A stretch of DNA of 64,000 nt. Source: Endozoicomonas sp. OPT23. GTDB taxonomy: Bacteria > Pseudomonadota > Gammaproteobacteria > Pseudomonadales > Endozoicomonadaceae. Numbering within the stretch: position 1 is the first letter of the stretch; each line of letters begins with the position of its first letter. This document shows positions 936 through 63,142 of the stretch, one piece after another. The position numbers were made by a program, and so were the translations under genes. The DNA lies in the NCBI RefSeq assembly GCF_009653635.1, contig NZ_PPFD01000003.1:762955-826954 (forward strand), written 5' to 3'. The notes under the pieces are model-generated. The model had not been told where the DNA came from. It made no database searches and worked only from the letters and a program-made list of their open reading frames with translations.

Positions 936-2282
936 ATGTCCAAAAACCTCCCATTGTCTCTAGGTGAGAAAACAGGATATGGACTTGGCGATTTCGGGAT
1001 CGGCCTGCTGTTTCACACCACCAGTATTTATCTGCTGATTTTTTATACTGATGTCTTCGGCATTTCAGCCATTGCCGCTTCCACTCTTTTCCTTGTTGCG
1101 CGACTTTGGGATGCTATCAATGACCCTATTGTCGGCGGCATTGTTGACCGTACCCGGAGCAGCTGGGGTAAGTTTCGACCCTATCTTTTGTTTGGCCCGA
1201 TTCCTTTAGGTATTGCCGGAGTACTTTGCTTTACTGTCCCTGACCTCTCAGATGTAGGCAAGCTGATATACGCCTATGTGACCTACATTACCTTCGGCAT
1301 GATTTACACTCTGGTAGCCGTTCCCTATAGCGCACTGACGTCATCCATTACCATGGATTCCGCTGAAAGAGGCGCCCTTTCTGGCCTCAGAGCCATGTTT
1401 ACACTGATGGCCGGAATGCTGGTTGCAAGTTTGCCTCTGCTGGTAACAGCGTTTGGTGGTGAAGATACAGCTGGCGGCTATCAGAAAAGCATAATGCTGT
1501 TCAGCGCCCTGATGGTTGCCTGTCTGTTTGTTACTTTTTATACGACCAAAGAACGTTATTCAGCACCTCCGCAGAAACAGGCCATAAGTCTTGCTGAAAT
1601 CATTTCAATACTGAAAACCAACCGACCACTGCAGATTGTCTGCCTGGCCTTTGTCGTCAGCTTTGGCAATATGTCTATCGCTGGGTCTGTAGGCACTTAT
1701 TTCTTTACCTACAATCTGGGGCGACCAGATCTTATCCCTGTATTTATGCTGATCAATGTTTCCACTGTTTTCGTGGGCATCCTTATCTGTCAACTGGTTC
1801 AGAAGAAGCTTGAGAAGAAGCAGATTATTATTCTGGGCACCCTGATCGGTATGATCCGCCCACTGTCCATGTACTTCCCTGATATCAATATCATTCTTAC
1901 CGGCAGTGTTATTGGCGGAATAGGTCAGGGTTTTGCCGTCGCGGTTATCTGGGCTTTTGTCGCAGATACCATTGAATACGGACAGTACAAAACCGGTCAG
2001 CGTAATGAGGGCATGACCTATGCGCTGGTTGGCTTCTTTATGAAAATGGGTGGAGCCCTTGGCGCCATGATTCCCGGTTTTGTATTGAACTACACCGGTT
2101 ATGTACCCAATGTCGAGCAGACAGAACTGACACTGTCTGGCATTACGATGCTTTGTGCCACCATTCCACTGCTTCTCTACGGCTGTTTTGCCCTGGTGAT
2201 GTCTCGCTACCCGCTGGATAAGAAAACTCATGACAGGATTGTCTGTGAGCTGGAGCAGCGGCAAGCAACAGTGAATGTGTAG
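936..2282 (+). CDS. GPH-family sugar:cation symporter (MelB/UidB-like)
   Basis: A 448-residue protein with about 12 hydrophobic segments. It carries the GPH signature around residues 57-83, where DAINDPIVGGIVDRT is followed by WGKFRP; family knowledge assigns the Asp residues here to cation coupling. It should import a glycoside, pentoside or hexuronide with Na+ or H+ across the inner membrane; the substrate cannot be read from sequence. It is a close full-length paralogue of the symporter at 8763-10103. Start ATG has AGGA 10 bases upstream. The stop codon TAG lies inside a copy of the palindromic repeat (TGTGTAGACACAC), so the 3' end of the gene is embedded in the element. Confidence 0.9.
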   Translation: MSKNLPLSLGEKTGYGLGDFGIGLLFHTTSIYLLIFYTDVFGISAIAASTLFLVARLWDAINDPIVGGIVDRTRSSWGKFRPYLLFGPIPLGIAGVLCFTVPDLSDVGKLIYAYVTYITFGMIYTLVAVPYSALTSSITMDSAERGALSGLRAMFTLMAGMLVASLPLLVTAFGGEDTAGGYQKSIMLFSALMVACLFVTFYTTKERYSAPPQKQAISLAEIISILKTNRPLQIVCLAFVVSFGNMSIAGSVGTYFFTYNLGRPDLIPVFMLINVSTVFVGILICQLVQKKLEKKQIIILGTLIGMIRPLSMYFPDINIILTGSVIGGIGQGFAVAVIWAFVADTIEYGQYKTGQRNEGMTYALVGFFMKMGGALGAMIPGFVLNYTGYVPNVEQTELTLSGITMLCATIPLLLYGCFALVMSRYPLDKKTHDRIVCELEQRQATVNV

Positions 2283-2364
2283 ACACACGCAATTTATTAG
2301 TCATAAGCTGTTTGCTAGAGTGCTCAGCCCAGTAACTCATCAGAGCTTATTTTTGAATCAGTCA
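2272..2364 (+). repeat. 93-bp palindromic element, copy 1 (eroded right half)
   Basis: The left end TGAATGTGTAGACACACG matches the family's TAAGTGTGTAGACACACG. The right half is only recognisable as GCTTAT plus TTGAATCAGTC, so the right limit is approximate. It overlaps the stop codon of the GPH symporter and the 5' end of the next gene. Confidence 0.5.
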
Positions 2365-3033
2365 GTCAAACTCGGTCTTCGCCTGCTGGCCATTGAACAA
2401 ATGGTCACCCGCCACTATGACAATATCTGGGATTGCTGTTGCGATCATGGCCTGCTTGGCATGCGCCTGCTGGAGAAGCAGGCTGCGGAAAAAGTGCACT
2501 TTGTCGATGTCGTTGAGTCACTGGTTAATGGTGTAAACCAGGCTCTTTCTGGCAATCCCGAGCTATACCCTGCTGACCAATGGCAGACACTCTGCATGGA
2601 TGTTGCTCGGCTTCCTGTCAGTGAAGCAAGCACCCATAAAGGTGATTCACACCTGGTCATTATCGCCGGAGTGGGCGGTGACCTGTTATTTGAACTGGTT
2701 GAAGCTATTCATAAGGCAAATCCTGAAACCAATATCGAATTTCTACTCTGCCCTGTTCGGCAGCACTTTCATGTGCGGGAAAGCCTGATAAACATGGGAA
2801 TGAAACTGATCAATGAATCTATTGTCTATGAAAACCGGCTGTTCTACGAAATCATTCATGTAGCCCGAAAAGGCAGGGAAGAGTTGACCTGTGTCGGTTC
2901 AAAGATGTGGGATTTCAGTGATGAAGACCATTGTCTCTATCTGCAGCAAACGGTCTCTCACTACCAGCGCCGCCTGAAAAGTGGCTGTGAAAAAACAGCC
3001 GCTATTCTTCAGCAATACCAAAACCTGCGTTGA
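2353..3033 (+). CDS. TrmK-like tRNA (adenine-22-N1)-methyltransferase family protein
   Basis: The motif IWDCCCDHGLLGMRLL is the SAM-binding loop of the COG2384/TrmK family, which methylates N1 of A22 in tRNA in Gram-positives; gammaproteobacterial members are less studied. A second family motif, LVIIAGVGGDL, is near the middle, and LLCPVRQHFHVRESL follows. The open frame extends up to an ATG at 2275, but those extra 26 residues fall inside the repeat element and have no counterpart in the family as I remember it, so I prefer TTG at 2353 (LNQSVKLGLRLLAIEQMV). The start is uncertain. The stop TGA lies at the edge of repeat copy 2. Confidence 0.75.
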   Translation: MNQSVKLGLRLLAIEQMVTRHYDNIWDCCCDHGLLGMRLLEKQAAEKVHFVDVVESLVNGVNQALSGNPELYPADQWQTLCMDVARLPVSEASTHKGDSHLVIIAGVGGDLLFELVEAIHKANPETNIEFLLCPVRQHFHVRESLINMGMKLINESIVYENRLFYEIIHVARKGREELTCVGSKMWDFSDEDHCLYLQQTVSHYQRRLKSGCEKTAAILQQYQNLR

Positions 3034-3121
3034 GCACCCAGCATACGACCTAATAAGCTGTTTACCCGCCTATGCAGGGCGGGCTGTAAGTTAATATTCG
3101 ATTAGTGTGTCTACACACAAA
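3030..3121 (-). repeat. 93-bp palindromic element, copy 2 (inverted orientation)
   Basis: Read on the plus strand it starts TTGAGCACCCAGCATACG and ends ATTCGATTAGTGTGTCTACACAC, the reverse complement of the family pattern (TAAGTACTCAGACATACG ... GTGTCTACACACTTA). The centre has CCCGCC / GGCGGG arms. The TGA stop of the TrmK-like gene (3031-3033) is part of the element end. Confidence 0.75.
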
Positions 3122-4054: not shown

Positions 4055-4147
4055 TGAGTGTGTAGACACACAATCCAATTTTTCAGCTATTTACCCGCCT
4101 GTAGCCTTCAATCAAACGCATTCGCGTTCCTCGATTATTGAACTTTT
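4055..4147 (+). repeat. 93-bp palindromic element, copy 3 (degenerate right half)
   Basis: It starts TGAGTGTGTAGACACAC, a clear match to the family's left end. The central arm TATTTACCCGCC is present, but the matching right arm and the GTATGTCT end are lost. The right limit is set only by the usual length. Confidence 0.55.
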
Positions 4148-8762: not shown

Positions 8763-10103
8763 ATGTCCACTGATGCCCCTCTGTCCGGTGGTGCCAAAGC
8801 CGGTTATGGTTTGGCCGAACTGGGGTCAGGTATTCTCCTGCAGTCCACCAGTGTTTACCTGATGATTTTCTACACCGACGTGTTTGGCATTTCGGTCGTA
8901 GCGGCTTCCACCCTGTTTCTGATTGCCCGTATCTGGGATGCCATCAACGACCCGTTGATGGGCGCTATTGTTGACCGAACAAAAACCCGCTGGGGCAAGT
9001 TTCGCCCTTATATGCTGTTTGGTGCCGTGCCACTGGGCATAGTAACCGCACTCTGCTTTACCACGGTTGACCTGTCAGAAACCGGCAAGCTGATTTATGC
9101 CTATGCCACCTTTATTGGCTTCGGCATGCTCTATACCATGGTCACCATCCCTTACGGTGCACTGGCGTCTTCCCTGTCCATGGATTCTAAAGAGCGTGGC
9201 AGTATTTCCGGTATTCGTATGATGTTCGGCATGGTGGGCGGCATGGTCGTTGCCATCATTCCTTTCCTGGTCACTGCGTTTGGAGATGGCGATACCGCTC
9301 AGGGCTATAAGATCACCATGTCCATTCTCTGCGGTTTGGCAGCCATCTGCTTTCTGGTCTCATTTGCTACGACAAAGGAACGCTACTCTGCACCACCTCA
9401 GGATACCCGTTTCAGTGTGAAGGACATTGTTGCCCTGCTGAAAGCCAATAAACCTCTGACTGTTCTCTGCCTCGCCTTTGTTGCCAACTCCCTTAACATG
9501 GGCGTTGCAACAGCCACAGGTACTTACTACTTCACTTACAATCTGGGTATGCCTGAGAAGTTCCCGCTGATGATGCTGACTCAGCTGGTGGTGATATTCA
9601 TCGGTATTATTGCTTCCCAGATTGCTCTGAAGAAGTTTGAAAAGAAGCAGATTCTGATTGTCGGTACTCTGCTGGGTATGGTGAAGCCTGCCGCTATGTA
9701 CTTCCCGGATCTGAACATCATTCTGGGTGCAACGATAATAGGCGGCTTTGGTCAGGGTCTGGCTGTGGCTCTGATATGGGCATTTGTGGCTGACACTATT
9801 GAATACGGCCAGCACAAAACCGGTAAGCGTGAAGAAGGCATGACTTACGCCGTATTCGGTTTCTTCCTGAAGTTTGGTGGTGCTATCGGCGCCATGATTC
9901 CAGGACTGGTTTTAAACTACACAGGTTATGTACCTAACGTAGAGCAAACCGAGCTGGCTACCTTTGGTATTACCACTCTGGCGGCGACTATTCCTCTGAT
10001 TGTCATGTCCATCTTTGTGTTGATCTTTACCCGCTATGATCTGGACAGTAAGAGCCATGCGAAGATTGTGGATGAGTTGCAGCAAAGGGAAGCTGTCGTT
10101 TAA
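8763..10103 (+). CDS. GPH-family sugar:cation symporter, second copy
   Basis: A 446-residue inner-membrane transporter with about 12 hydrophobic segments and the GPH signature DAINDPLMGAIVDRTKT followed by WGKFRPYMLFG. It aligns without large gaps to the symporter at 936-2282, with most residues identical by eye, so the two arose by duplication. It lies 90 bases after the AraC gene and is probably its target. A likely role is uptake of the sugar or glycoside handled by the GH2 enzyme. The C-terminal tail after the last helix (SKSHAKIVDELQQRE) matches the family's cytoplasmic end. Confidence 0.92.
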   Translation: MSTDAPLSGGAKAGYGLAELGSGILLQSTSVYLMIFYTDVFGISVVAASTLFLIARIWDAINDPLMGAIVDRTKTRWGKFRPYMLFGAVPLGIVTALCFTTVDLSETGKLIYAYATFIGFGMLYTMVTIPYGALASSLSMDSKERGSISGIRMMFGMVGGMVVAIIPFLVTAFGDGDTAQGYKITMSILCGLAAICFLVSFATTKERYSAPPQDTRFSVKDIVALLKANKPLTVLCLAFVANSLNMGVATATGTYYFTYNLGMPEKFPLMMLTQLVVIFIGIIASQIALKKFEKKQILIVGTLLGMVKPAAMYFPDLNIILGATIIGGFGQGLAVALIWAFVADTIEYGQHKTGKREEGMTYAVFGFFLKFGGAIGAMIPGLVLNYTGYVPNVEQTELATFGITTLAATIPLIVMSIFVLIFTRYDLDSKSHAKIVDELQQREAVV

Positions 10104-13744: not shown

Positions 13745-13837
13745 TAAGCGTATCTACACGCGTAGGGGAATATTGGATTGTCATTTCTCCACCACAGCCG
13801 GAGAAATGACATATGTATTCATATGTTCGGATACTTA
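13745..13837 (+). repeat. 93-bp palindromic element, copy 4 (complete)
   Basis: It starts TAAGCGTATCTACACGCG and ends ATATGTTCGGATACTTA, exactly 93 bases. The central arms GTCATTTCTCC / GGAGAAATGAC pair perfectly but differ from those of other copies. Confidence 0.85.
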
Positions 13838-43518: not shown

Positions 43519-44007
43519 ATGAGAAGCCGAAAAGAAGTTGTCCGCCAGCTGGACAGGATTGATCGAAATATCCTTCGAACTCTCCAGGAAAATGGTCGTA
43601 TTTCCTATGTAGATCTTGCCGATCGTGTAGGGCTGAGTACTACGCCATGCATGGAGCGTGTGAAGCGTCTTGAGCGTGAAGGCATTATTCAGGGCTACAG
43701 TGCTCGCCTGAACCCACAATATCTTCAGGCTGGACTGCTGGTGTATGTGGAGATCAGTCTCTATTCCAAATCAGCGGATGTTTTTGACGAGTTCCGTCGT
43801 TCAGTCATTGCTCTGCCAAACGTTCTGGAATGCCACCTGGTATCAGGTAACTTCGACTACCTGGTGAAAGCTCGTATTTCTGAAATGGCTTCCTACCGCG
43901 AGCTGCTGGGCGATATTCTGCTCAAACTGCCGGGTGTTCGTGAGTCCAAAAGCTATATCGTCATGGAAGAGCTGAAAGAAACTCTGAACCTGCCAATCCC
44001 TGAGTGA
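43519..44007 (+). CDS. lrp: Leucine-responsive regulator, Lrp/AsnC family
   Basis: A 162-residue global-type regulator. The N-terminal helix-turn-helix is LDRIDRNILRTLQENGRISYVDLADRVGLSTTPCMERVKRLEREG, close to E. coli Lrp, and the C-terminal RAM domain includes LPNVLECHLVSGNFDYLVKARISEM. It binds leucine or other amino acids and controls amino-acid metabolism. The leucine dehydrogenase operon 820 bases downstream is a natural target. The ribosome site is weak. A 12-bp palindromic hairpin follows the gene. Confidence 0.93.
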   Translation: MRSRKEVVRQLDRIDRNILRTLQENGRISYVDLADRVGLSTTPCMERVKRLEREGIIQGYSARLNPQYLQAGLLVYVEISLYSKSADVFDEFRRSVIALPNVLECHLVSGNFDYLVKARISEMASYRELLGDILLKLPGVRESKSYIVMEELKETLNLPIPE

Positions 44008-44027
44008 GTTTGAACTTCAGATTCATA

Positions 44028-44062
44028 CGTCATTTGCCAGCCATAAACGGGCAAATGACGTA
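44028..44062 (+). terminator. Hairpin after lrp
   Basis: ACGTCATTTGCC / GGCAAATGACGT, a perfect 12-bp stem with an 11-base loop. The arm GTCATTT is the same as in repeat copies 4 and 6, and a TGAGTG lies at the stop codon, so this may be a worn copy of the palindromic element. Confidence 0.55.
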
Positions 44063-44113
44063 TAGATAATCAACTCTGTTCGTCTACCGAATAAAAAAAA
44101 TCCCTGATAAAAC

Positions 44114-45930: not shown

Positions 45931-47025
45931 ATGAAAGCTAAAGAATACTGCCATATTCCTTATATTCGCTACCTGAGCGATGAAGGAGAAGCGCTGCATC
46001 GACTGCCCGCCTGGACTGAAAACTCTGATGTTCTTGTTGATTACTACCGCAGCATGGTGATTGCCCGTGCCGGTGATGCCAAAGCTGTCGCTCTTCAGAG
46101 AACAGGGCAGATGGGAACCTATCCATCGGCCCTAGGACAGGAGGCTATCAGCACAGTCTGCTGCTCACTGCTGGAAAAAGAAGATGTACTGATTCCTTAC
46201 TACCGTGATCTTCCCGGCCTTATGAAACGGGGAATTCCTCTGTCCGATGTACTGCTCTACTGGGGCGGCGATGAAAGAGGCAGTGCCAGCGAAGCCTGGG
46301 GAAAAGACTTCCCAAACTGTGTACCTATTGCTACTCAGGCTGGTCATGCTGCCGGTGTGGCAACAGCCTTAAAGGTTCGCCACCAGCATCAGGTCGCCAT
46401 GGTTTCCATGGGAGATGGTGCAACTTCTAAAGGTGATTTTACAGAGGCTCTTAACCTTGCCGGGGTCTGGCAACTGCCCATCGTCTTTATTATTAACAAC
46501 AACCAGTGGGCGATTTCTGTTCCCCGCAAGATTCAGTCCGGCGCTCCAACCCTTGCCCAAAAAGGTGTCTCTGCTGGCTTAACCTCTATTCAGGTAGACG
46601 GCAATGACGTCATTGCTCTGCACGAAGCGGTCAACGCAGCGATCAAACAGGCCAGAAGTGGTAAGGGGGCAACAGTCATTGAAGCCATCACTTATCGACT
46701 GGGCGATCATACAACGGCAGACGATGCCAGCCGTTACCGAGAGAGTGAAGAGTTACAGGAAGCATGGGGCAGGGAACCGATCAAACGACTGCGAAACTTT
46801 CTTTATCAACGAGGTTTATGGAACGAAGAAAAAGAACAGGCACTGCAGAAGGAAGCCGCAGCCCTTATCGACAAAGAAGTTAAGCGCTACCTGAACACAC
46901 CACTCCCTGAAATCAGTGACCTCTTTGATCACCACTACGCTCAAATGCCCGCCCAGCTGGAAAAACAAAAACAACACGCAATAGCAAAAGCTGAAGCCAT
47001 GAACATGGGAGGGGTGCATTCATGA
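45931..47025 (+). CDS. 2-oxo acid dehydrogenase E1 component, alpha subunit
   Basis: A 364-residue thiamine-diphosphate enzyme subunit. The ThDP motif starts GDGATSKGDFTEALNLAGVWQLP and ends in IINNN. Conserved RTGQMGTYPSALGQEA and the phosphorylation-loop-like YRLGDHTTADDASRYR are visible. With E1 beta it decarboxylates 2-oxo acids; the leucine dehydrogenase gene upstream suggests branched-chain oxo acids, although pyruvate is possible. Its leader holds two direct repeats of GAGCACAATA (45896-45919) just before GGGAG. It overlaps E1 beta by 4 bases. Confidence 0.92.
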   Translation: MKAKEYCHIPYIRYLSDEGEALHRLPAWTENSDVLVDYYRSMVIARAGDAKAVALQRTGQMGTYPSALGQEAISTVCCSLLEKEDVLIPYYRDLPGLMKRGIPLSDVLLYWGGDERGSASEAWGKDFPNCVPIATQAGHAAGVATALKVRHQHQVAMVSMGDGATSKGDFTEALNLAGVWQLPIVFIINNNQWAISVPRKIQSGAPTLAQKGVSAGLTSIQVDGNDVIALHEAVNAAIKQARSGKGATVIEAITYRLGDHTTADDASRYRESEELQEAWGREPIKRLRNFLYQRGLWNEEKEQALQKEAAALIDKEVKRYLNTPLPEISDLFDHHYAQMPAQLEKQKQHAIAKAEAMNMGGVHS

Positions 47026-48053
47026 ACAGTTCTGTTTCCGAAACCGTCGACCAGTCCATTCCCAAAGAAGTGTCCGAAAAGCTGACCATGGTTGAAGCAG
47101 TAAACCTGGCTCTTGATCACGCTATGGCAGACGATCAGGACGTAGTTCTGCTGGGAGAAGATATCGGCGTCAATGGCGGTGTATTCCGTGCCACTCAAGG
47201 TTTAAGAGATAAGTACGGTTTGAAGCGAGTGATGGATACACCACTGGCTGAAACATTAATCGCAGGTATAAGTGTCGGCATGGCGACTCAGGGTTTAAAA
47301 CCTGTGGCTGAGATTCAGTTTATGGGCTTTATTTTTCCCGCCATGGAACAGCTGATCTGCCACGCTGCCCGTATGCGAAACCGCACTCGTGGACGCTTAA
47401 CCTGCCCGATGGTTTTGCGTGCTCCTTTTGGTGGTGGCATTCACGCACCAGAACATCATTCCGAAAGCACTGAAGCACTTCTGGCCCATATTCCGGGCTT
47501 GAGAGTTGTGATGCCTTCTTCTCCAGTTCGAGCCTATGGATTATTAAGAGCGGCTATCAACGACCCTGACCCAGTCATTTTTCTGGAACCCAAACGAATC
47601 TACAGAGCAGTAAAACAGGATGTCAGTTACGACACCGCTATTCTGCCTCTGGATAAGTGCTTCACTCTGAAGCAGGGCAATGATGTCACCCTGATCAGTT
47701 GGGGTGCGGCAGTTAAGGAAACCATGGAAGCCGCCAACACACTTCAGGAGTATGGAGCTTCGGTGGAAGTGATTGATGTGGCCACCATCAAACCTCTGGA
47801 TATGGAAACCATTCTGACTTCTGTTCGCAAAACTGGCCGCTGTGTGATTATTCATGAAGCCTGCAAGAGTTTCGGTGTTGGTGCTGAGATCAGTGCTGCA
47901 CTTGCTGAAGAAGCCCTGACCGATCTGAAAGCGCCAGTCGAACGGGTCACCGGATACGACATCACCATGCCTTACTACCGCATGGAAGATCACTACCTTC
48001 CAAAGCCTGATGACATTATCAAAGCGGCATTGAAAACATTGTCATTCCATTGA
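47022..48053 (+). CDS. 2-oxo acid dehydrogenase E1 component, beta subunit
   Basis: A 343-residue partner of E1 alpha, recognised by LLGEDIGVNGGVFRATQGL, RVMDTPLAETLIAG, PFGGGIHAPEHHSES and the C-terminal transketolase domain (ISWGAAVKETMEAA; GRCVIIHEACKSFGVGAEI). It starts in an ATGA overlap with E1 alpha. Its TGA stop is the first triplet of a palindromic repeat (TGAGTG...), which fills almost the whole gap to the E2 gene. Confidence 0.93.
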   Translation: MNSSVSETVDQSIPKEVSEKLTMVEAVNLALDHAMADDQDVVLLGEDIGVNGGVFRATQGLRDKYGLKRVMDTPLAETLIAGISVGMATQGLKPVAEIQFMGFIFPAMEQLICHAARMRNRTRGRLTCPMVLRAPFGGGIHAPEHHSESTEALLAHIPGLRVVMPSSPVRAYGLLRAAINDPDPVIFLEPKRIYRAVKQDVSYDTAILPLDKCFTLKQGNDVTLISWGAAVKETMEAANTLQEYGASVEVIDVATIKPLDMETILTSVRKTGRCVIIHEACKSFGVGAEISAALAEEALTDLKAPVERVTGYDITMPYYRMEDHYLPKPDDIIKAALKTLSFH

Positions 48054-48143
48054 GTGTTTAGACACACCTGATCGAATGTTTAATTTAGCCTCTTTCCCGC
48101 CTACGGCGGGAAAGAGGCATTAGGTTCGTATTTTAAAGAACAG
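48051..48143 (+). repeat. 93-bp palindromic element, copy 5 (right end worn)
   Basis: It starts TGAGTGTTTAGACACACC and has perfect central arms GCCTCTTTCCCGCC / GGCGGGAAAGAGGC around TAC. The right end keeps only TTCGTAT. It overlaps the E1 beta stop codon, ends about 12 bases before the E2 start, and could act as an RNA processing or attenuation site inside the operon. Confidence 0.75.
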
Positions 48144-48154
48144 GAATAATAACA

Positions 48155-54992: not shown

Positions 54993-55083
54993 TAATTGTG
55001 TAGCCAAACGTAATCGAATGTTAGATTGTCATTTCCCCGCCGGGCGGGGAAATGACATATGAATTCATATGTCCGGGTGCTGA
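54993..55083 (+). repeat. 93-bp palindromic element, copy 6
   Basis: It starts TAATTGTGTAGCCAAACG and continues TAATCGAATGTTAG. The perfect central arms are GTCATTTCCCCGCC / GGCGGGGAAATGAC. It ends ATTCATATGTCCGGGTGCTGA. Confidence 0.85.
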
Positions 55084-55464
55084 ATGTACTCTATTCAAAA
55101 TCAATCTGCTCGATTACTCGCTATTCCCTGAAAATTTTTGCGTAAAACTTACAAAGCCATCATCTAATATCTATAAATAAAAATTAACGATACAGATTAA
55201 TACTTTGCAAAAAAACAGAAGAGTTATACACTTGCCATGAATAAGGTAATAAAATTTGTATTGCCTGACTAACTAAGCGAAATTTCAAGCTGTGTTTGAT
55301 TGATTCGGTATGATCAATCTGATTTTGAGTAGATGTCCAAATGACTTCTCTCTCATCATATATCGATCACCACGATTATCATCAATTAACGTCATGCTCC
55401 AGCATTACGCTTTTATTAGTTTCATAATAATATTTTTATATTTACCACCTTCGGGAGTAATTGA
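55084..55464. other. AT-rich leader of the H-NS-like gene
   Basis: 381 bases, clearly AT-rich, with no supported gene. GATTGAT / ATCAATC forms a small hairpin near 55300. Curvature and self-binding of the H-NS-like protein would be expected in such DNA. A GGGAG ribosome site ends the region. Confidence 0.5.
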
Positions 55465-55884
55465 ATGAACGTTTTTGACGAAATCCATCACCGCCTGAGC
55501 AGTAAAACTCGTATCCGTTCTCTGTTTAAAGATGTTCACGTTGAAGATCTGGAACGCATCATCAAACGCATGAATGAAGTGCGTGAAGAAAAAATTGCAG
55601 CACGCAGCAAAGACGAAGAAAAGCGTAAAGCCAAGTTTGATAACATCGAAGCTATCAAACAGATCATGGCTGAAAAAGGCGTTTCCATGGACGATCTGGA
55701 CGCTCTGGAACTGATTGCTCCTAAGCGTAAACGCAACGTTCAGAAATTCACTTTTGAATACCAGACTGAAGCTGGCGACTCTGTTCAGTGGGATGGCTCT
55801 ACTACTGGCCGTCTGCCACGTGACTTCCAGGCTTACCTGGAACGCTCTGGCAAGAAGCGTCTGGACTGCGTTGTAGAAGACTGA
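55465..55884 (+). CDS. H-NS-family histone-like nucleoid protein
   Basis: A 139-residue protein with the H-NS layout. The N-terminal helical oligomerisation region runs to about residue 70 (LERIIKRMNEVREEKIAARSKDEEKRK). A linker with basic patch PKRKRNVQ leads to a C-terminal domain KFTFEYQTEAGDSVQWDGSTTGRLPRDFQAYLERSGK, which fits the H-NS DNA-binding fold with the loop motif altered to TTGRLP in place of QGRTP. It likely silences AT-rich DNA. Codon use is biased to C/G-ending codons, as expected for an abundant protein. Confidence 0.85.
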   Translation: MNVFDEIHHRLSSKTRIRSLFKDVHVEDLERIIKRMNEVREEKIAARSKDEEKRKAKFDNIEAIKQIMAEKGVSMDDLDALELIAPKRKRNVQKFTFEYQTEAGDSVQWDGSTTGRLPRDFQAYLERSGKKRLDCVVED

Positions 55885-55921
55885 GTTGTAGAAGACTGAG
55901 TAATAAATGACTTAGTGTTTT

Positions 55922-55946
55922 AAAAAGGGGCTTTCTGCCCCTTTTT
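55922..55946. terminator. Bidirectional terminator between the H-NS-like gene and phoR
   Basis: AAAAAGGGGC / GCCCCTTTTT with a 5-base loop; T and A runs on both sides serve convergent genes. Confidence 0.85.
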
Positions 55947-55972
55947 AAATTCTCTCATTTATTATCCACAGG

Positions 55973-57295
55973 TTATTCTGCAACAACTAATTCAAGGCAC
56001 CTGTCCGGAAAATGACAAACAAATTTACTGCCCTTGCCTGGATGACTACTGATGGTTAGCCGGCCACCGTGTCGCAGCATAACGTGTTTCACAATAGCCA
56101 AGCCCAGCCCTGTACCACCGGTATTCTGGCTCCGGCTTTTATCAATCCTGTAAAACCGTTCAGTCAGTCGAGGGATATGCTGAGGATCAATACCGACACC
56201 ATTATCTTCAACGATCAAACGTCCGCCTTCCTTACTCTGTTTCCAGCGAATCTTTACCTTTCCACCCAACGGAGTGTAACGAACTGCATTGAATACAAGG
56301 TTAGAAAATGCACTTCTTAATTCATGACCACTGCCAGAAAGTACAATATCGTCATCACACTTGAGTGAAATCTGATGCTGATTTTCACCACTCAGCGCAC
56401 GTCCATCCTCAACAATACTCTGGAGCATGGAAGACAAATGAATACCGTTTGGATCAACATTCGCTTCTGCAGACTCCAGTTTCGACAGTAATAATAAATC
56501 TGCCACCAGGTTCTGCATTCGCAGCGACTGCTCCTGCATACGATTCAGTGCTTTTTCCCAGACAGGAGGCAGGTCAGAATCCGGCCCCAGGTTGTCCAGC
56601 ATGGTTTCCAGATAACCCGCTACCACGGTAAGTGGTGTTCTCAGCTCATGGGACACATTGGCAACAAAATCTTTTCGCATGACTTCCAGTTGATTCAACC
56701 GGGTTACATCCCGAACAATCATCAACCGATTGCCTTTACCGTAAATAGTAATATTGAACTGAAGCTGAGCATCGTCATTAACCGGTGACGGTATTTCCAA
56801 TGCCTTTTGATATCGCCCCAGCTCAAAATAATCAGCAAAGCGAGGATCGCGCAACAGGTTGGTTATATTTTGCCCCTGGTCATCTGGTGACTGTAAACCC
56901 AGCAGTGCTGCAGCAGATGGGTTCCACCATTCAAGGCTGTGGTTATGGTCAATCAACACCACACCATCACTGAGCGCAGAAGTTGATTCTTGAATTCGTT
57001 GAATCACCATGGTCAGCTTTTGACGGGAACGACCATGGTTCTTCTGCATTCGATAAATGCTGTCGAACACTTCACCCCAAAGACCAGTACTTTCCGGTGG
57101 TTCTTTAGATGATGTTTTAGGGTCGTTCAGCCAATCCAGCAGCTTAATCAGCTGCCGAATGCTCCAGATAAAATAGCTGCCCATGGCAATGGACAACCCC
57201 AGAAAAGGTTTGCCAAACAGCGAGCCAAGAAGCAAACCAGCACCAAGCAGAAGCAACAGCTGCCTGATAATGCTGGATTTGGAAAATGTCGTCAT
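55973..57295 (-). CDS. phoR: Phosphate regulon sensor histidine kinase PhoR
   Basis: A 440-residue inner-membrane kinase that senses phosphate status through PstSCAB/PhoU and phosphorylates PhoB. Two N-terminal helices (about 8-45), a PAS domain (about 90-195), the H-box FVANVSHELRTPLTVVAGYLETM, N-box NLVFNAVRYTP, and G-boxes DNGVGID and GTGLGLAIVKH are visible. The ribosome site GGGAG sits 4 bases before ATG 57295; a TTG 15 bases upstream is not needed. It is separated from phoB by 163 bases that contain a palindromic element. Confidence 0.93.
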   Translation of the reverse strand: MTTFSKSSIIRQLLLLLGAGLLLGSLFGKPFLGLSIAMGSYFIWSIRQLIKLLDWLNDPKTSSKEPPESTGLWGEVFDSIYRMQKNHGRSRQKLTMVIQRIQESTSALSDGVVLIDHNHSLEWWNPSAAALLGLQSPDDQGQNITNLLRDPRFADYFELGRYQKALEIPSPVNDDAQLQFNITIYGKGNRLMIVRDVTRLNQLEVMRKDFVANVSHELRTPLTVVAGYLETMLDNLGPDSDLPPVWEKALNRMQEQSLRMQNLVADLLLLSKLESAEANVDPNGIHLSSMLQSIVEDGRALSGENQHQISLKCDDDIVLSGSGHELRSAFSNLVFNAVRYTPLGGKVKIRWKQSKEGGRLIVEDNGVGIDPQHIPRLTERFYRIDKSRSQNTGGTGLGLAIVKHVMLRHGGRLTISSHPGKGSKFVCHFPDRCLELVVAE

Positions 57296-57338
57296 AACTC
57301 TCCCGGTCAAACTGCCTGTACCGATCAGAAGACAGAAC

Positions 57339-57431
57339 TAAGTGTATAAACAGACGTAACCGAATATTAAGTTGCTGTTTGATCGCCTGCAGCAGGTAAA
57401 CAGCTCCTGAATTCGTATGTCTGGCTACTTA
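57339..57431 (+). repeat. 93-bp palindromic element, copy 7, between phoB and phoR
   Basis: It starts TAAGTGTATAAACAGACG and ends ATTCGTATGTCTGGCTACTTA, exactly 93 bases. The central arms GCTGTTT / AAACAGC and CCTGC / GCAGG pair with an internal bulge. It lies inside the phoB-phoR transcription unit. Confidence 0.85.
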
Positions 57432-57458
57432 TTGTCCTGACAATCAATAGCCCGAACT

Positions 57459-58148
57459 TCAGACTTTTGTAGAGAAACGATAACCTGTTCCACGAACCGT
57501 CTGAACATAACCTTCATAGCTACCGCCAAGCGCTTTTCGAAGACGACGAATATGTACGTCTACTGTTCTCTCTTCTACATACACATTGCCACCCCAGACC
57601 TGGTCAAGCAACTGCCCACGGGTATAGGCCCGTTCCTGGTGAGTGAGGAAGAACTGCAGCAAACGATATTCTGTGGGTCCTATATCAGCGGGATCACCAT
57701 CAATAGAAACCCGGTGACTGATAGGATCAAGCTCCAATCCTTGAATCACAATCGGCCCCTGACTATCAAAACCACCGGTTCTTCTCAGAACCGCTTTCAG
57801 TCTGGCAGCCAGTTCACGGGGTGAAAATGGTTTGGTGATGTAATCATCAGCGCCGGTTTCCAGGCCCTGAATTTTATGGTCTTCCTCACCTTTGGCTGTG
57901 AGCATGACGATGGGTATTTCAGACGTAAGTTCACTGCGCTTCAAGCGTCGCGCCAGTTCAATTCCGGAAATGTCCGGCATCATCCAGTCAAGCAGGATCA
58001 AATCAGGCTTGTGGTCCACGATTAATGAATGAGCTTCTCTGGCGTCAGCTGCTTCCATGCAGTCGTAGCCTGCCATTTCCAGAGCTACGGTGACCATCTC
58101 TCTAATGGGGGCTTCATCATCAACAATGAGGATCTTTTTTCCCGACAT
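57459..58148 (-). CDS. phoB: Phosphate regulon response regulator PhoB
   Basis: A 229-residue OmpR-type regulator. The receiver domain has phospho-acceptor Asp54 in [13 protein letters not shown], acidic pair DD 10-11 and the conserved Lys in LTAKGEED. The winged helix ends with [23 protein letters not shown]. It activates phosphate-starvation genes at Pho boxes. A candidate box lies upstream (58228-58244), consistent with autoregulation. Confidence 0.95.
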
Positions 58149-58227
58149 TGCTCTCTACCTGTGTCCGTTCTTTTTCTCGACAGCGTAAGCACCAAGACAT
58201 TTGAAATCACAAGTCACTTGTATGCTC

Positions 58228-58244
58228 ATGGCAACCAAATGACA
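58228..58244 (-). promoter_or_regulatory. Candidate Pho box upstream of phoB
   Basis: On the minus strand TGTCAT, five bases, then TGCCAT, giving 11-base spacing between repeat units as in the Pho box. It lies 80 bases before the phoB start. Confidence 0.4.
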
Positions 58245-58314
58245 AACTGATATTCTATAACCTGTGTCTACAGACTTACTGTCCCTCTTATCTGATTGCA
58301 TTCTCAGCTTTAAT

Positions 58315-58407
58315 TGTTACAGACACATGACAGTCGCATATGTTCTACCTCCTCCACCGCCGAGGATAGAACAACCTGATATTCGACTACATGTGTCTAC
58401 ACACTTA
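58315..58407 (-). repeat. 93-bp palindromic element, copy 8 (inverted)
   Basis: The end TACATGTGTCTACACACTTA is clear on the plus strand, and arms TGTTCTA / TAGAACA with CCTC / GAGG form the centre. The left end (TGTTACAGACACATG) is a weaker match. It starts 6 bases after the ubiA stop on the minus strand. Confidence 0.7.
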
Positions 58408-58413
58408 TGAAAC

Positions 58414-59343
58414 TCAACTCATCAGATAGCTGCCAACAATCCCGGCAAAGACAATAGCGCCTGCCCAGTGATTGTTGAGAAACGCCTTGAAGCAGGGGTC
58501 TCTCTCACGCTTGCTGGTCAGTTTTTGTTGAAAAACAAACAACGCTGAAACACCTGCGAGAGACAGATAAAAAGGCAGTTCCATGGACAACTGCTGACCG
58601 ACAAAGAACAGTGTCACAACAGTCAAAGCCTGCAAACAGCCAATAATCAGGTTATCCATTTCACCAAACAGAATAGCAGTGGACTTAATGCCGATCTTTA
58701 AATCGTCATCTCTATCCACCATGGCATATTGAGTATCATAGGCTACCGTCCAGAACAGATTCGCCAGAAAGAGCAGCCAGGTTACCTGTGTCAGCTCACC
58801 ACTTTCTGCGGCAAAAGCCATGGGAATAGACCAGCCAAAAGCAGCCCCGAGAACCACTTGAGGAAGATGTGTATAACGTTTGGCAAAAGGATAAGCTGCT
58901 GCCAGCACTACACCGCCAAATGACAGCATGATGGTGAAAGTATTAGTAAATAAAACCAGCAAAAATGCCGTAGAAACCATCGCCATAAAAAAGGATAACG
59001 CCTCTTTGACGGTCACTTTTCCTGTCACCAGAGGGCGTGCTTTGGTTCGCTTAACGGCACCGTCAACATTTCGGTCAGCAAAGTCGTTAATGACACAACC
59101 AGCGCTTCTCATCAGTACGACACCGAGAGAAAAAATAGCAATATTGGCAAGCGAAGGAATACCTTCTGCAGAAAGCCAAAGAGCCCAGAAGGTTGGCCAC
59201 AGTAACAGGTAGATGCCAATGGGGCGATCAAGCCTGGCAAGTTGTAAAAAATCATTAAAACGGGGAAAGCGTTTATCAAAAAGAGTTGGTTCTAAAGTGC
59301 TTCCCGCCGGTTTTCTGAAAAGCATCGTTTTTTTTGAAAGCAT
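58414..59343 (-). CDS. ubiA: 4-hydroxybenzoate polyprenyltransferase UbiA
   Basis: A 309-residue inner-membrane enzyme that joins the polyprenyl tail to 4-hydroxybenzoate in ubiquinone synthesis. Both Mg-diphosphate motifs are present: [20 protein letters not shown] and [19 protein letters not shown]. About eight to nine hydrophobic segments follow. The 20 or so residues before [28 protein letters not shown] are variable, so the start (59343 or 59325) is uncertain. It lies downstream of ubiC and upstream of phoBR on the same strand. Confidence 0.93.
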
Positions 59344-59371
59344 AAGAGCTGCTCGCCCATTTCGGGCCTAT

Positions 59372-59464
59372 TAAGTGTGTGGACACACGTAATCGAATAT
59401 TAAATTGCTCTTTGCCCGGCTCCGCCGGGCAAAGAGCTTATGAATTCGTATGTCTGAGTACTTA
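59372..59464 (+). repeat. 93-bp palindromic element, copy 9 (best-preserved)
   Basis: It starts TAAGTGTGTGGACACACG, continues TAATCGAATATTAAATT, and ends ATTCGTATGTCTGAGTACTTA, 93 bases. The central arms GCTCTTTGCCCGGC / GCCGGGCAAAGAGC form a perfect 14-bp stem with loop TCC. It sits between ubiC and ubiA. Confidence 0.9.
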
Positions 59465-59492
59465 TGTACGGCAGAATGATGCGGTCAGTTTA

Positions 59493-60101
59493 TCAGGTTA
59501 CATGGGTAACTTCTTTATCATGAAGGTTTTCTTCATCGTGATTTGAGTAATCTGGCAAGAATATTTCGCACACTGAAATAGGCTTATCGTTCAAGTAAAA
59601 CAGCGAGCGACGTCCCCATGCTGTTTCATTTTCATAGCTCTGATCAAGATGAGCATTGAATTGTCTGGCGGGCAGTGCAGCGATTTCAAAAGGGCCTCGC
59701 TTCATAGCCGGATGGGTAAACAGAAACTCTCCCAGAGGCCTGTTTCCTAATTCAAGTAGTTCTCTGTTTGCACCTTCCAGACTGGTCAGCGGCAATACAC
59801 TTCTGGCAAACACTCTTGGCTTATCATCACAAATGAGCAGAACTTCTCGTATGTTTGCCTCAATTGCTGGCTGATTCAGAAAATTCTGTTCGGAGTCCGT
59901 GGGCATTTCACATTCATGTTTCACCACTCGAACCTTAAAGCTGTTTTGACACTCCTGCTTTAATCGTTGAGTTAACGAACCACTGTCCAGCAACCAGTTC
60001 CGCCACTGCTCAGGTATCTGATCTGGCGAATACGGTTTCGGGTTCCAGGGTAATCCGGTGAAATCAAAAAAGGGCACTACTACTCCATTTCTTACAGTCA
60101 A
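59493..60101 (-). CDS. ubiC: Chorismate lyase UbiC
   Basis: A 202-residue cytoplasmic enzyme that releases pyruvate from chorismate to give 4-hydroxybenzoate, the substrate of UbiA. Family segments are WRNWLLDSGSLTQRLKQ, REVLLICDDKPRVFARSVLP and the C-terminal GRRSLFYLNDKPISVCEIFLPD, where the Arg and Glu line the active site. ubiA lies 149 bases downstream, with a palindromic element between them. The last 20 residues (after EIFLPD) are a charged extension of no known role. Confidence 0.9.
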   Translation of the reverse strand: MTVRNGVVVPFFDFTGLPWNPKPYSPDQIPEQWRNWLLDSGSLTQRLKQECQNSFKVRVVKHECEMPTDSEQNFLNQPAIEANIREVLLICDDKPRVFARSVLPLTSLEGANRELLELGNRPLGEFLFTHPAMKRGPFEIAALPARQFNAHLDQSYENETAWGRRSLFYLNDKPISVCEIFLPDYSNHDEENLHDKEVTHVT

Positions 60102-60112
60102 AACAGTCTACT

Positions 60113-60205
60113 TAAGTGTGTAGACATATACGCACGAATATCTGATCATTCTTTACACAAAAATGATCGATAAAGATCCTGCGAATCGATATGCACGGTT
60201 GCTTA
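60113..60205 (+). repeat. 93-bp palindromic element, copy 10
   Basis: It starts TAAGTGTGTAGACATATACG and ends GATATGCACGGTTGCTTA, 93 bases. The GC-rich centre is replaced by arms GATCATT / AATGATC, but a stem at the centre is kept. It lies 11 bases upstream of the ubiC start codon. Confidence 0.75.
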
Positions 60206-60405
60206 TACACCAGAGCCTATGTGCTCTCCAAAGCGAAGGTCTCATTAAACTTACATCGTATATAAGCCCTTCGGGTGATTCGTATTATTGGTCAAAATGG
60301 TTCAATTGAGAATTGAAAAATTTACCAGGAATCTGTCGGGCTTAAGTTCAACAGGTTTTTGGAACCATATGAACGCATCATTTCCAGGGAAGGGATGACA
60401 ACACA
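60206..60405. other. Leader region of the TetR gene
   Basis: No gene is seen. The divergent ubiC and TetR promoters must lie here or in the element to the left. An AGGGA ribosome site lies 11 bases before the TetR start. Confidence 0.4.
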
Positions 60406-61029
60406 ATGATCAGTAGCACAGGGCGAATAAGAACTGAACGAAGCCGCATCATTTTAGAGGCGGCAATGAAAGAGTTTGCCCATTATGGTTATGCCGGTGC
60501 CACCGTTCAGGGTATTGCAGACAGGGCAGAACTGCCAAAGCCCAACATTATCTATTACTTCAATAATAAACAGGCTGTTTACGACAAAGTCTTATTAAAC
60601 ATCCTGAAACTGTTTCAGGAACGGCTCAGTCCGATTACAGCAGAAGATGACCCTGCACAGGTTTTAAAAACCTACATCCATTCGAAGGTTTCTCTAGCGA
60701 GAGACTATCCGGCAGCCTGTCGTATCTTTGCCAGCGAGATCGTTCATGGTGGCCAGAACCTATCACCAAATATGAAGCAGGCTATGAGAAAGTGGGCCAA
60801 CAGATCCACGACAGTTTTTCAGCAATGGGTTGATGAAGGAAAAATGACTCCTGTCGACCCTACCCACCTGCTGTTCATGATTTGGGGTTCCTCTCAGTTT
60901 TACGCTGACTATGAAACACAGGTGAAAACCGTTATTAACCGTAAAAAAATATCCAGGGCACATTACCAGCAGGCCGCTGAGACTATCTGCGATATCGTTC
61001 TCAGAGGATGCGGACTCAATAGCGGGTAA
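60406..61029 (+). CDS. TetR-family regulator, RutR-like
   Basis: A 207-residue repressor-type protein. The N-terminal helix-turn-helix spans about 10-57 (RSRIILEAAMKEFAHYGYAGATVQGIADRAELPKPNIIYYFNNKQAVYDKVL). The C-terminal part (IFASEIVHGGQNLSP, LLFMIWGSSQFYADYETQV) resembles the ligand domain of RutR, which senses pyrimidines. The target is unknown; the LysE exporter 61 bases downstream on the same strand is the natural candidate. Confidence 0.88.
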   Translation: MISSTGRIRTERSRIILEAAMKEFAHYGYAGATVQGIADRAELPKPNIIYYFNNKQAVYDKVLLNILKLFQERLSPITAEDDPAQVLKTYIHSKVSLARDYPAACRIFASEIVHGGQNLSPNMKQAMRKWANRSTTVFQQWVDEGKMTPVDPTHLLFMIWGSSQFYADYETQVKTVINRKKISRAHYQQAAETICDIVLRGCGLNSG

Positions 61030-61090
61030 AAATCGTCGCGATCATCGGCTATAGTGTCTGATTGTCACAGCTCAAATAAAGAGAACTCCT

Positions 61091-61723
61091 ATGCTGTTGG
61101 ATTTCTGGCCTGCACTGGTCGCCTTAACCCTGCTCACAATGACACCAGGGGCTGACACTCTTATCATCATGAAGAATACCAGTCGCGGTGGTTTGATGGA
61201 CGGAAGTATCACAAGTCTCGGCATCTGCTCCGGCCTGTTTATTCATGCTTTGGTTTCTGCAGCGGGCATTTCTGTCATTCTTCTACAATCTGCAACAGCT
61301 TTCAGTGTACTGAAGCTTGCGGGTGCGGCGTATCTTGTCTGGTTGGGTGTTGGTAGCCTGAAACAGGCCTTTCGATCGAACACAGCCATGTTTGATGTTC
61401 AAAGCAAAGAGCACTTTTTCTCTGCTGTTAAGTCTTTTCAGGAAGGGTTTCTCTCTAATGTCTTGAACCCGAAGACCGTGATCTTCTACATGGCCTTTCT
61501 GCCACAGTTTATTAATCCGGAAGGCTCAGCTCTTGTGCAATCAATGACACTGGCCGCCCTGCATTTCACCATCGCCATGATTTGGCAGATTTCTCTGGTG
61601 CTGATGGTTAACAAAGCCAGAGTCTGGTTATCACGCCCAATAGTTAATCGTGGATTTAATGGCGTAACAGGCTCTCTACTGGTGTCTCTGGGTATTGGTC
61701 TGGCATTACAGAAAAGTGATTAG
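61091..61723 (+). CDS. LysE/RhtB-family exporter
   Basis: A 210-residue inner-membrane protein with about six hydrophobic segments and the family N-terminus LTLLTMTPGADTLIIMKNTSRGG, then LKLAGAAYLVWLGV and NVLNPKTVIFYMAFLPQFI. It exports amino acids or derivatives. It probably forms a unit with the TetR gene in front. The ribosome site is AGAGA. A palindromic element follows the stop. Confidence 0.92.
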   Translation: MLLDFWPALVALTLLTMTPGADTLIIMKNTSRGGLMDGSITSLGICSGLFIHALVSAAGISVILLQSATAFSVLKLAGAAYLVWLGVGSLKQAFRSNTAMFDVQSKEHFFSAVKSFQEGFLSNVLNPKTVIFYMAFLPQFINPEGSALVQSMTLAALHFTIAMIWQISLVLMVNKARVWLSRPIVNRGFNGVTGSLLVSLGIGLALQKSD

Positions 61724-61734
61724 TCCGACGGTTA

Positions 61735-61825
61735 AAAGTGTGTAGGCACACATTGGAGTACTAAATTGCTGTCTGCCCGCTTCAGGCGGGTAAACAGCTT
61801 ATGGATTCGTATATCTGGGTGCTTA
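61735..61825 (+). repeat. 93-bp palindromic element, copy 11
   Basis: It starts AAAGTGTGTAGGCACACA and ends ATTCGTATATCTGGGTGCTTA, 91 bases. The central arms GCTGTCTGCCCGC / GCGGGTAAACAGC pair with wobble and one mismatch. It lies directly after the LysE exporter gene and could act as its terminator. Confidence 0.85.
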
Positions 61826-61924
61826 AAATAGTCCTGCCTAATTACATACAAAAGCAACCGAATTGGTAAACTCCAGACCAGCACTGAAAACAATAAATAG
61901 AATCAATAATGTGAGTCACAGAGT

Positions 61925-62016
61925 TAAGTACTCGGGCACGCAAATTCGAAGCCTCTTTATCTGCTGAAAGCACGTAAGAGCTGGTGGTTGTTCGAATTTG
62001 TATGTCTACACACTTA
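61925..62016 (-). repeat. 93-bp palindromic element, copy 12 (inverted), rubredoxin leader
   Basis: On the plus strand it starts TAAGTACTCGGGCACGCAAA and ends TTCGAATTTGTATGTCTACACACTTA (92 bases). The centre is weak (CCTCTTTATCTGC / GCACGTAAGAG). It is convergent with copy 11, 99 bases away, and ends at the rubredoxin ribosome site. Confidence 0.75.
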
Positions 62017-62893: not shown

Positions 62894-62980
62894 GCCCAGG
62901 TGGCGGAATTGGTAGACGCGCTAGCTTCAGGTGCTAGTGTCCGAAAGGGCGTGGAAGTTCGAGTCTTCTCCTGGGCACCA
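62894..62980 (+). tRNA. tRNA-Leu (anticodon CAG), copy 1
   Basis: 87 bases including CCA. The acceptor GCCCAGG pairs perfectly with CCTGGGC. The D-arm GGCGGAATTGGTAGACGCG, anticodon arm CTAGC-TTCAGGT-GCTAG with anticodon CAG, long variable arm GTCC-GAAA-GGGC and T-loop TTCGAGT are all typical of tRNA-Leu. Confidence 0.97.
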
Positions 62981-63043
62981 ATCATTTAGCTTTCATATGG
63001 CGATGACTGGTCGGGTTTTTAACCCATAAAATATATATGATTT

Positions 63044-63130
63044 GCCCAGGTGGCGGAATTGGTAGACGCGCTAGCTTCAGGTGCTAGTGTCCGTTAGGGC
63101 GTGGAAGTTCGAGTCTTCTTCTGGGCACCA
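63044..63130 (+). tRNA. tRNA-Leu (anticodon CAG), copy 2
   Basis: 87 bases including CCA, almost identical to copy 1. The variable-arm loop reads GTTA instead of GAAA, and the last acceptor pair is G-U instead of G-C. The duplicate begins 63 bases after the first and both probably come from one transcript. Confidence 0.97.
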
Positions 63131-63142
63131 AATCATATAGTT

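What the first reader, a model, noticed from the sequence alone, without database searches (positions are those of the whole stretch)
54993..62016. A family of about 93-bp intergenic palindromes, twelve copies in 64 kb
Copies at 2272, 3030, 4055, 13745, 48051, 54993, 57339, 58315, 59372, 60113, 61735 and 61925; seven lie in this 7-kb stretch. Complete ones are 91-93 bases, start TAAGTGTGTAGACACACG, end near GTCTGAGTACTTA, and enclose a stem whose two arms change together (GCTCTTTGCCCGGC, GTCATTTCCCCGCC, GCCTCTTTCCCGCC, GCTGTTT). Fixed length and paired changes point to selection on a folded form in RNA or cruciform DNA. I do not recognise it as REP, BIME, ERIC or a known MITE.
Basis: seen in the sequence. 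Interest (0 to 1): 0.75.

Follow-up and report, generated by a model that had tools for sequence, protein, structure and literature searches.

The report
Hairpin mini-transposon family in Endozoicomonas
The repeated 93-letter hairpins are copies of a tiny hitch-hiking transposon that inserts at TA sites, most likely with the help of a larger IS630-type element; this kind of element is known, but the hairpin arms here change in matched pairs in a way that points to a DNA-level process rather than to a working RNA.

Summary
The repeat is real. A covariance model finds at least 149 copies in the 4.94-Mb genome (149 of 150 candidates scored) and 39-43 in one congener; 35 of 37 genomes of the family gave none. 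It is a mobile element. In the syntenic region of the congener the sites are empty, with one TA where the window has TA at both ends (four clean cases, two more consistent). The congener carries a 1147-bp IS630-family insertion sequence whose ends resemble those of the repeat. The repeat is therefore an IS630-type MITE, like pneumococcal RUP. The window's own genome shows no IS630 or Y1 transposase, so its copies look orphaned unless the draft assembly misses the partner. Covariation in the stem is strong. But one-sided changes are common, G-U is not favoured over C-A (35 versus 52), and some two-sided changes separate nearly identical copies. That argues against selection on the sense-strand RNA and for a DNA-level process: arm-to-arm template switching, or a hairpin needed for transposition. 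New member of a known kind; the paired-change pattern is the interesting part.

The parts
2272..2289 (+). left-end fragment of the element; holds the TAG stop of ORF 936-2282
   Evidence: 18-mer with 2 mismatches; no R1 match at E 0.05; ORF list
3031..3121 (-). decayed full-length copy
   Evidence: R1 28.1 bits, E 0.003
4055..4072 (+). left-end fragment
   Evidence: 18-mer with 2 mismatches; no R1 match at E 0.05
13745..13837 (+). full-length copy
   Evidence: R1 83.9 bits; absent from the congener, junction not exact
   Evidence: R1 27.1 bits, E 0.0055; absent from the congener, junction unclear
48051..48144 (+). copy with cut right end; its first three bases are the TGA stop of ORF 47022-48053
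   Evidence: R1 46.2 bits; ORF list
54993..55083 (+). full-length copy with perfect stem
   Evidence: R1 96.7 bits; flanks too diverged for an empty-site test
57339..57431 (+). full-length copy between phoR-like and phoB-like genes
   Evidence: R1 88.5 bits; clean TA empty site; genes by Pfam
   Evidence: R1 83.3 bits; clean TA empty site
   Evidence: R1 40.8 bits; bases up to about 58335 align with congener flank
59372..59464 (+). full-length copy, second-best score in the genome
   Evidence: R1 111.5 bits; TA empty site
60113..60205 (+). divergent copy
   Evidence: R1 24.5 bits, E 0.023; absent from the congener, consistent with a TA site that reads CA there, short alignment
61735..61825 (+). 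full-length copy
   Evidence: R1 85.2 bits; absent from the congener, consistent with TA but a run of A blurs the junction
61925..62016 (-). divergent copy
   Evidence: R1 29.4 bits; clean TA empty site
59407..59437 (+). central hairpin of the 59372 copy (14-bp arms, 3-base loop; family positions 36-66)

Best explanation
The repeat is a non-autonomous mini-transposon (MITE) of the IS630 type. It has two imperfect inverted ends that share TAAGT-n4-(A/G)GACA, joined by a hairpin with 14-bp arms that is perfect in the best-preserved copies. It carries no gene; an IS630-family transposase acting in trans inserts it at TA dinucleotides, leaving TA on both sides. Shown: family, copy number, TA empty sites, restriction to two of 37 genomes, and an IS630 element with similar ends in the closest relative. 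Inferred: that this IS, or a lost relative of it, moved the MITE. The window's genome lacks such a transposase in its assembly. Also inferred: the arms of the hairpin stay matched because one arm is rewritten from the other during DNA replication (template switching), or because only well-folded elements transpose, rather than because inserted copies act as RNA.
For: At least 149 copies in own genome (149 of 150 scored at E<=0.01); 43 of 75 scored in G001; 2 of 37 genomes of the family positive (115 candidates scored per genome); end motif at <=1 mismatch in 1 of 390 genomes of the order, the own one (G001 not drawn). Empty sites in G001 with a single TA: clean for 57339, 58186, 59372, 61925; consistent for 60113 and 61735. 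1147-bp IS in G001 with an IS630 transposase in two ORFs (second ORF NF033545 126 bits, cut-off 100, and DDE_3 105 bits), bounded by TAAGTAGCCAGACAACAG and TAAGTACTCAGACAAATG. MITE right end versus IS right end 22/29 (0 of 20000 shuffles as good), MITE left versus IS right 21/36, P 0.00005. 75 of 78 copies lie outside or at the ends of ORFs, against 22% of random 93-mers. Identical copies at different loci, L100 and L101, suggest fairly recent spread.
Against: No transposase of the right kind is found in the window's own genome: 0 DDE_3, 0 Y1, 0 DNA matches to the IS. The MITE left end resembles the IS right end only moderately beyond the first 14 bases (11/22, P 0.036). The IS is seen as one full copy plus three right-end pieces in G001, and no experiment links the two. 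Only 53 of 90 aligned copies have TA at both ends. For the two G001 copies tested, no clean empty site was recovered in the window. Of the 12 window sites put to the empty-site test, six gave no exact TA junction: 13745, 44005, 48051, 54993, 58311 and 3031.
Confidence: 0.92

Rival explanations
1. The folded form is selected as RNA in the inserted copies (terminator, mRNA stabiliser, RNase site or small RNA), and the paired changes are ordinary RNA compensation.
For: Strong covariation: 305 cells with change on both sides against 94 in shuffles. Over copies of greater divergence one-sided stem changes fall to about half of what the arm rate predicts, as selection would give. The C-A excess (52 versus 35 G-U, P 0.04) would be G-U on the minus strand. 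Copies often sit just after a stop codon (median 28 nt in tandem gaps).
Against: G-U is not favoured on the plus strand, and G001 gives 12 G-U and 10 C-A. In close copies (arm divergence under 6%) one-sided changes number 59 against 69 expected. Copies in tandem gaps face both ways, 26 versus 23. No Rfam match at gathering threshold. The sister genome lacks the copies at the same genes where this could be tested.
Confidence: 0.08
2. The hairpin is selected at the DNA level during transposition: only elements with a well-paired centre (cruciform or fold-back that brings the ends together) are mobilised, so paired changes accumulate in source lineages while inserted copies decay freely.
For: The commonest stem types are perfect or nearly so. 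Five hairpin-less derivatives of 46-71 bp in the fetched stretches each have their own junction and none is seen twice there. Tip branches carry many pair-breaking changes: 64 against 34 paired on the all-sites tree, 66 against 63 on the arms-only tree.
Against: Two-sided transversion-type changes separate nearly identical copies, e.g. A-T to C-G with 1 of 62 arm sites different, and direct one-sided intermediates are rare at the flipped pairs 41 and 43 (one each in 90 copies); that is hard to get by two successive mutations.
Confidence: 0.3
3. REP/BIME-type repeat mobilised by a RAYT (Y1 tyrosine transposase), because GTAG lies in the left end.
For: GTAG within GTGTGTAGACACAC; hairpin; intergenic position.
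Against: 0 Y1 transposases in the own genome, while the same search rings in 5 of 7 relatives; the repeat has a TA duplication and IS630-like ends.
Confidence: 0.01
4. Repeated exchange of whole centres between subfamilies by recombination, not new mutation, makes the paired differences.
For: Several pairs often differ together between close copies (four pairs between L089 and L091).
Against: Single-pair two-sided changes also occur (L105, L091 against L095 or L096). There are 64 different left-arm sequences among 90 copies, many of them decayed forms, and 11 distinct two-sided changes among close copies; exchange cannot create the variety.
Confidence: 0.1

Closest known systems
RUP (repeat unit of pneumococcus)
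   Same: 107 bp, 108 intergenic copies, ends like IS630-Spn1, which is the proposed partner, and insertion at TA (passages of PMC2229807 seen)
   Different: other host, and no sequence comparison was run; here the candidate partner is found only in the sister species; whether RUP has a sequence-diversified perfect stem was not looked at
Correia / NEMIS elements
   Same: short repeated element with inverted ends and TA at the termini (table passage of PMC2229807), more than 120 copies (passage of PMC10969869)
   Different: other length; promoter, IHF and RNase III roles reported there (passages) were not tested here
ERIC (enterobacterial)
   Same: 127-bp repeat with inverted ends, target duplication and TA at the termini (PMC2229807 passages)
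   Different: other length and hosts; no sequence comparison run
about 165-bp palindromic elements of another Endozoicomonadaceae genus (G024, G028, G030) and a 209-bp one in the congener G008
   Same: ends such as TAAGTAGTTAACCAAATGAAATCATATATT, close to the right end of the same IS630 element; palindromic
   Different: longer, different centre; these genomes give no match to model R1

Membership tests
bacterial MITE | short, no transposase gene | tested here: met
   complete copies mostly 91-94 bp, too short for a transposase
bacterial MITE | terminal inverted repeats | tested here: met
   both ends TAAGT-n4-(A/G)GACA; alignment A2, RNAalifold
bacterial MITE | target duplication shown by empty sites | tested here: met
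   single TA in G001: four clean, two consistent, six not resolved of 12 window sites tested
bacterial MITE | high copy number, mainly intergenic | tested here: met
   >=149 copies; 75 of 78 outside or at ends of ORFs
IS630-derived MITE | ends like those of an autonomous IS630 element | tested here: met
   L258 in G001, 22/29 for the right end, 21/36 for the left
IS630-derived MITE | partner transposase in the same genome (usual, not strictly required) | tested here: not met
   0 DDE_3 and 0 IS DNA matches in G000; the assembly is in 30 contigs, so a repeat may be missing; a candidate is in G001
IS630-derived MITE | mobilised by that transposase | not testable with these tools
   needs a transposition assay
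REP / BIME | RAYT (Y1) transposase partner | tested here: not met
   0 in own genome
curated RNA family | match to an Rfam model | tested here: not met
   only two tRNAs in the window at gathering threshold
ERIC | ERIC sequence, 127 bp | not tested
   length differs; no sequence comparison run

The most novel reading that the evidence does not exclude
The family is a natural record of DNA template switching: hairpin arms of a mini-transposon are rewritten pairwise in single events, so strong 'RNA-like' covariation arises without any RNA function. If so, covariation alone is not proof of a structured RNA for any mobile palindrome.
Probability: 0.4. Interest if true: 0.6.

Novelty: new member of a known kind. 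Interest (0 to 1): 0.42.

Why it matters
It adds a large, lineage-restricted IS630-type MITE family to Endozoicomonas, symbionts of corals and other marine animals, with empty sites and a candidate partner IS in hand. More generally, some 150 copies of one hairpin with neutral flanks let one ask whether paired changes come from selection or from a copying mechanism. Template switching has been proposed for RNA genes (PMC8794818; abstract and start of the introduction read). A mobile palindrome that passes a covariation test yet shows no clear RNA signature is also a warning for automated searches for structured RNAs.

Tried and rejected
Rejected: Rfam family; REP/RAYT; IS630 partner inside the own genome; a longer autonomous element with the same ends inside the fetched stretches of the own genome (none recognised; only part of the genome was read); presence in phages or plasmids (no match). 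Four viral contigs hold the 18-mer exactly; R1 gives only 19.7-20.7 bits there (E 0.017-0.03), and the four stretches are versions of one unrelated sequence without the rest of the element, so I take them as a chance match. General clustering of copies (not above random except the window patch). Empty-site test for the two copies of G001 on contig C22 (no clean answer). Empty sites for 3031 and 54993 (flanks too diverged); 13745, 44005, 48051 and 58311 gave no exact junction. The transition share of two-sided changes (85 of 126) lies between that of the arms (347 of 583) and that of one-sided stem changes (97 of 134) and does not decide between the readings. Literature: four searches for Endozoicomonas repeats, MITEs or IS630 MITEs listed no paper that names this family in title or shown abstract; only the listings were seen, papers of subscription journals are largely missing, and ISfinder was not available.

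Rows dropped: the stem statistics use 90 of the 124 matches. Identical copies, two reverse-strand doubles, lengths outside 88-95, more than one inserted base, more than three gaps, and fewer than 64 of 93 consensus matches were left out. The ORF test uses 78 of those 124 matches, typed from the list; left out were the copies in 3-kb loci, reverse-strand doubles, window 58311 and several weak or short ones. ORFs there are mechanical (100 aa or more), not gene calls. Counts over pairs of copies are not independent: of 35 two-sided cells among close copies 11 involve one copy, L105; they come down to 11 distinct changes in 19 copies, against 15 distinct one-sided changes.
Full report
WHAT IS THERE. 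The window lies at G000:C23:762955-826954 of a 4.94-Mb genome in 30 contigs. The UbiA protein at 58414-59343 is closest, among the named genomes returned, to Endozoicomonas sp. ISHI1 (73%). G004, listed as same genus, has a contig of the same length (202,194) as that ISHI1 record, so the host is an Endozoicomonas by inference. The start motif TAAGTGTGTAGACACACG has 12 matches at up to 3 mismatches in the window (0.04 expected) and 110 at up to 2 mismatches in the genome, against 1 for the reversed control. A covariance model R1 built from 12 copies finds 149 places of 150 scored at E<=0.01 in the genome, so 149 is a lower bound. In the window the model adds a full copy at 58186-58278 and a decayed one at 44005-44093, and does not report 2272 and 4055, which are fragments.

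DISTRIBUTION. With R1, 2 of 37 genomes of the family are positive, the own one and G001; in a wider set 2 of 57. Candidates scored per genome were limited to 115 and 75. The end motif at up to 1 mismatch is found in 1 of 390 genomes of the order, the own one; G001 was not drawn there. No match in phages or plasmids; four viral contigs share the 18-mer by what looks like chance.

IT MOVES. G001 is syntenic with the window at about 70-87% DNA identity in the larger aligned blocks. Aligning the sites shows G001 without the copy and with a single TA where the window has TA at both ends of the copy. This is clean for 57339, 58186, 59372 and 61925. It is consistent for 61735, where a run of A blurs the junction, and for 60113, where G001 reads CA and the alignment is short. 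13745, 44005 and 48051 are absent from G001 but without an exact junction; 58311, 3031 and 54993 could not be resolved. None of the window copies that could be tested is present in G001. Of 90 aligned copies 72 begin with TA, 70 end with TA and 53 do both. Identical copies at distant loci exist (L100 and L101).

THE PARTNER. The own genome has no Y1 transposase and no DDE_3/IS630 transposase. DDE_3 matches exist in 19 of 37 genomes searched. The one at G001:C156 lies in a 1147-bp element whose two ends begin TAAGTAGCCAGACAACAG and TAAGTACTCAGACAAATGAAATCATATATT. Its transposase is spread over two ORFs, with HTH domains in the first and DDE_3 in the second; the second passes the NCBIfam IS630 cut-off (126 bits against 100). 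The right end of the repeat agrees with the right end of the IS at 22 of 29 positions and the left end at 21 of 36 (0 and 0.00005 of 20000 shuffles as good). Beyond the first 14 bases the agreement is weaker (P 0.007 to 0.036). The DNA of this IS has no match in the own genome; in G001 there is one full copy and three right-end pieces. Genomes of one other genus (G024, G028, G030) and the congener G008 carry longer palindromes with the same kind of ends, so MITEs seem to have arisen from this IS lineage more than once.

THE HAIRPIN. The central stem (positions 36-49 with 53-66) is standard-paired in 92% of cells in 90 copies, against 35-54% when one side is slid by 1-3 positions. On the model alignment 28 of 29 pairs have a two-sided change and 305 cells carry one, against 94 in shuffles, 0 of 500 as high. 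Three results go against RNA selection. First, G-U cells (35) are fewer than C-A cells (52); in 15 copies of G001 they are 12 and 10. The C-A excess (P 0.04) would read as G-U on the minus strand, so a minus-strand RNA is not excluded by this test. Second, between copies whose arms differ by less than 6%, one-sided stem changes number 59 against 69 expected from the arm rate, while two-sided kept changes number 35 against about 1 expected. These counts repeat events: they come down to 11 distinct two-sided and 15 distinct one-sided changes. Third, copies in tandem gene gaps lie in both orientations (26 and 23). At greater divergence one-sided changes fall to about half of the prediction from the arms, so either some constraint or a conversion of one-sided into two-sided changes is needed. 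Tip branches carry 64 pair-breaking and 34 paired changes on a tree from all sites, 66 and 63 on a tree from the arms alone. Two-sided changes include transversion types (41 of 126 in nearest-neighbour pairs); one copy, L105, differs from L100 by an A-T to C-G swap with 1 of 62 arm sites changed. Direct intermediates for the C-G/G-C flip at pair 43 and the T-A/A-T flip at pair 41 are rare (one copy each of 90). A template switch that copies one arm onto the other does this in one step (mechanism: PMC8794818, abstract and start of the introduction read). Selection for a paired centre during transposition is the main rival. It is favoured by the fact that the five hairpin-less forms of 46-71 bp in the fetched stretches each have their own junction.

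LOCATION. Of 78 copies 50 are intergenic, 25 overlap an ORF end and 3 lie inside an ORF; 22% of random 93-mers fall outside or at ORF ends. Two window copies hold the stop codon of the ORF they abut (936-2282 and 47022-48053). The patch of six model hits in 7 kb is rare under random placement (1 of 2000), but copies elsewhere are not clustered.

VERDICT. An IS630-type MITE family, new member of a known kind, close in kind to RUP (PMC2229807, passages read). The likely partner sits in the sister species; the own copies may be orphaned, or the partner may be missing from the draft assembly. The paired-change pattern is the part worth following.

Noticed in passing
L281, L291, L292 (G028, G024, G030); L280 (G008): Palindromic elements of about 165 bp (209 bp in G008) with ends TAAGTAGTTAACCAAATGAAATCATATATT or similar, i.e. 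apparently other MITE families built on the same kind of IS630 ends, in one other Endozoicomonadaceae genus and in a congener.
   Followed up: partly
L201:4826-4912 (own genome C12): An 87-bp relative with the left-end motif at both ends and a different stem (GGCCATTACCCGCC), possibly a second, symmetric MITE family; L197:4754 looks related.
   Followed up: partly
L007:1501, L194:4390, L199:4921, L202:4906, L205:11065: Short derivatives of 46-71 bp that have lost all or most of the central hairpin, each with its own junction, as expected of palindrome deletion.
   Followed up: partly
window 62894-62981 and 63044-63131: Two tRNA genes, 97% identical, 150 bases apart.
   Followed up: no
window 1770-2177 and 9597-10004: Two related stretches (70-73% DNA identity); the first lies in a GPH-type sugar:cation symporter gene.
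   Followed up: no
L193:8453-8577: A full copy with a second left end directly behind it, a possible nested insertion or partial duplication.
   Followed up: no
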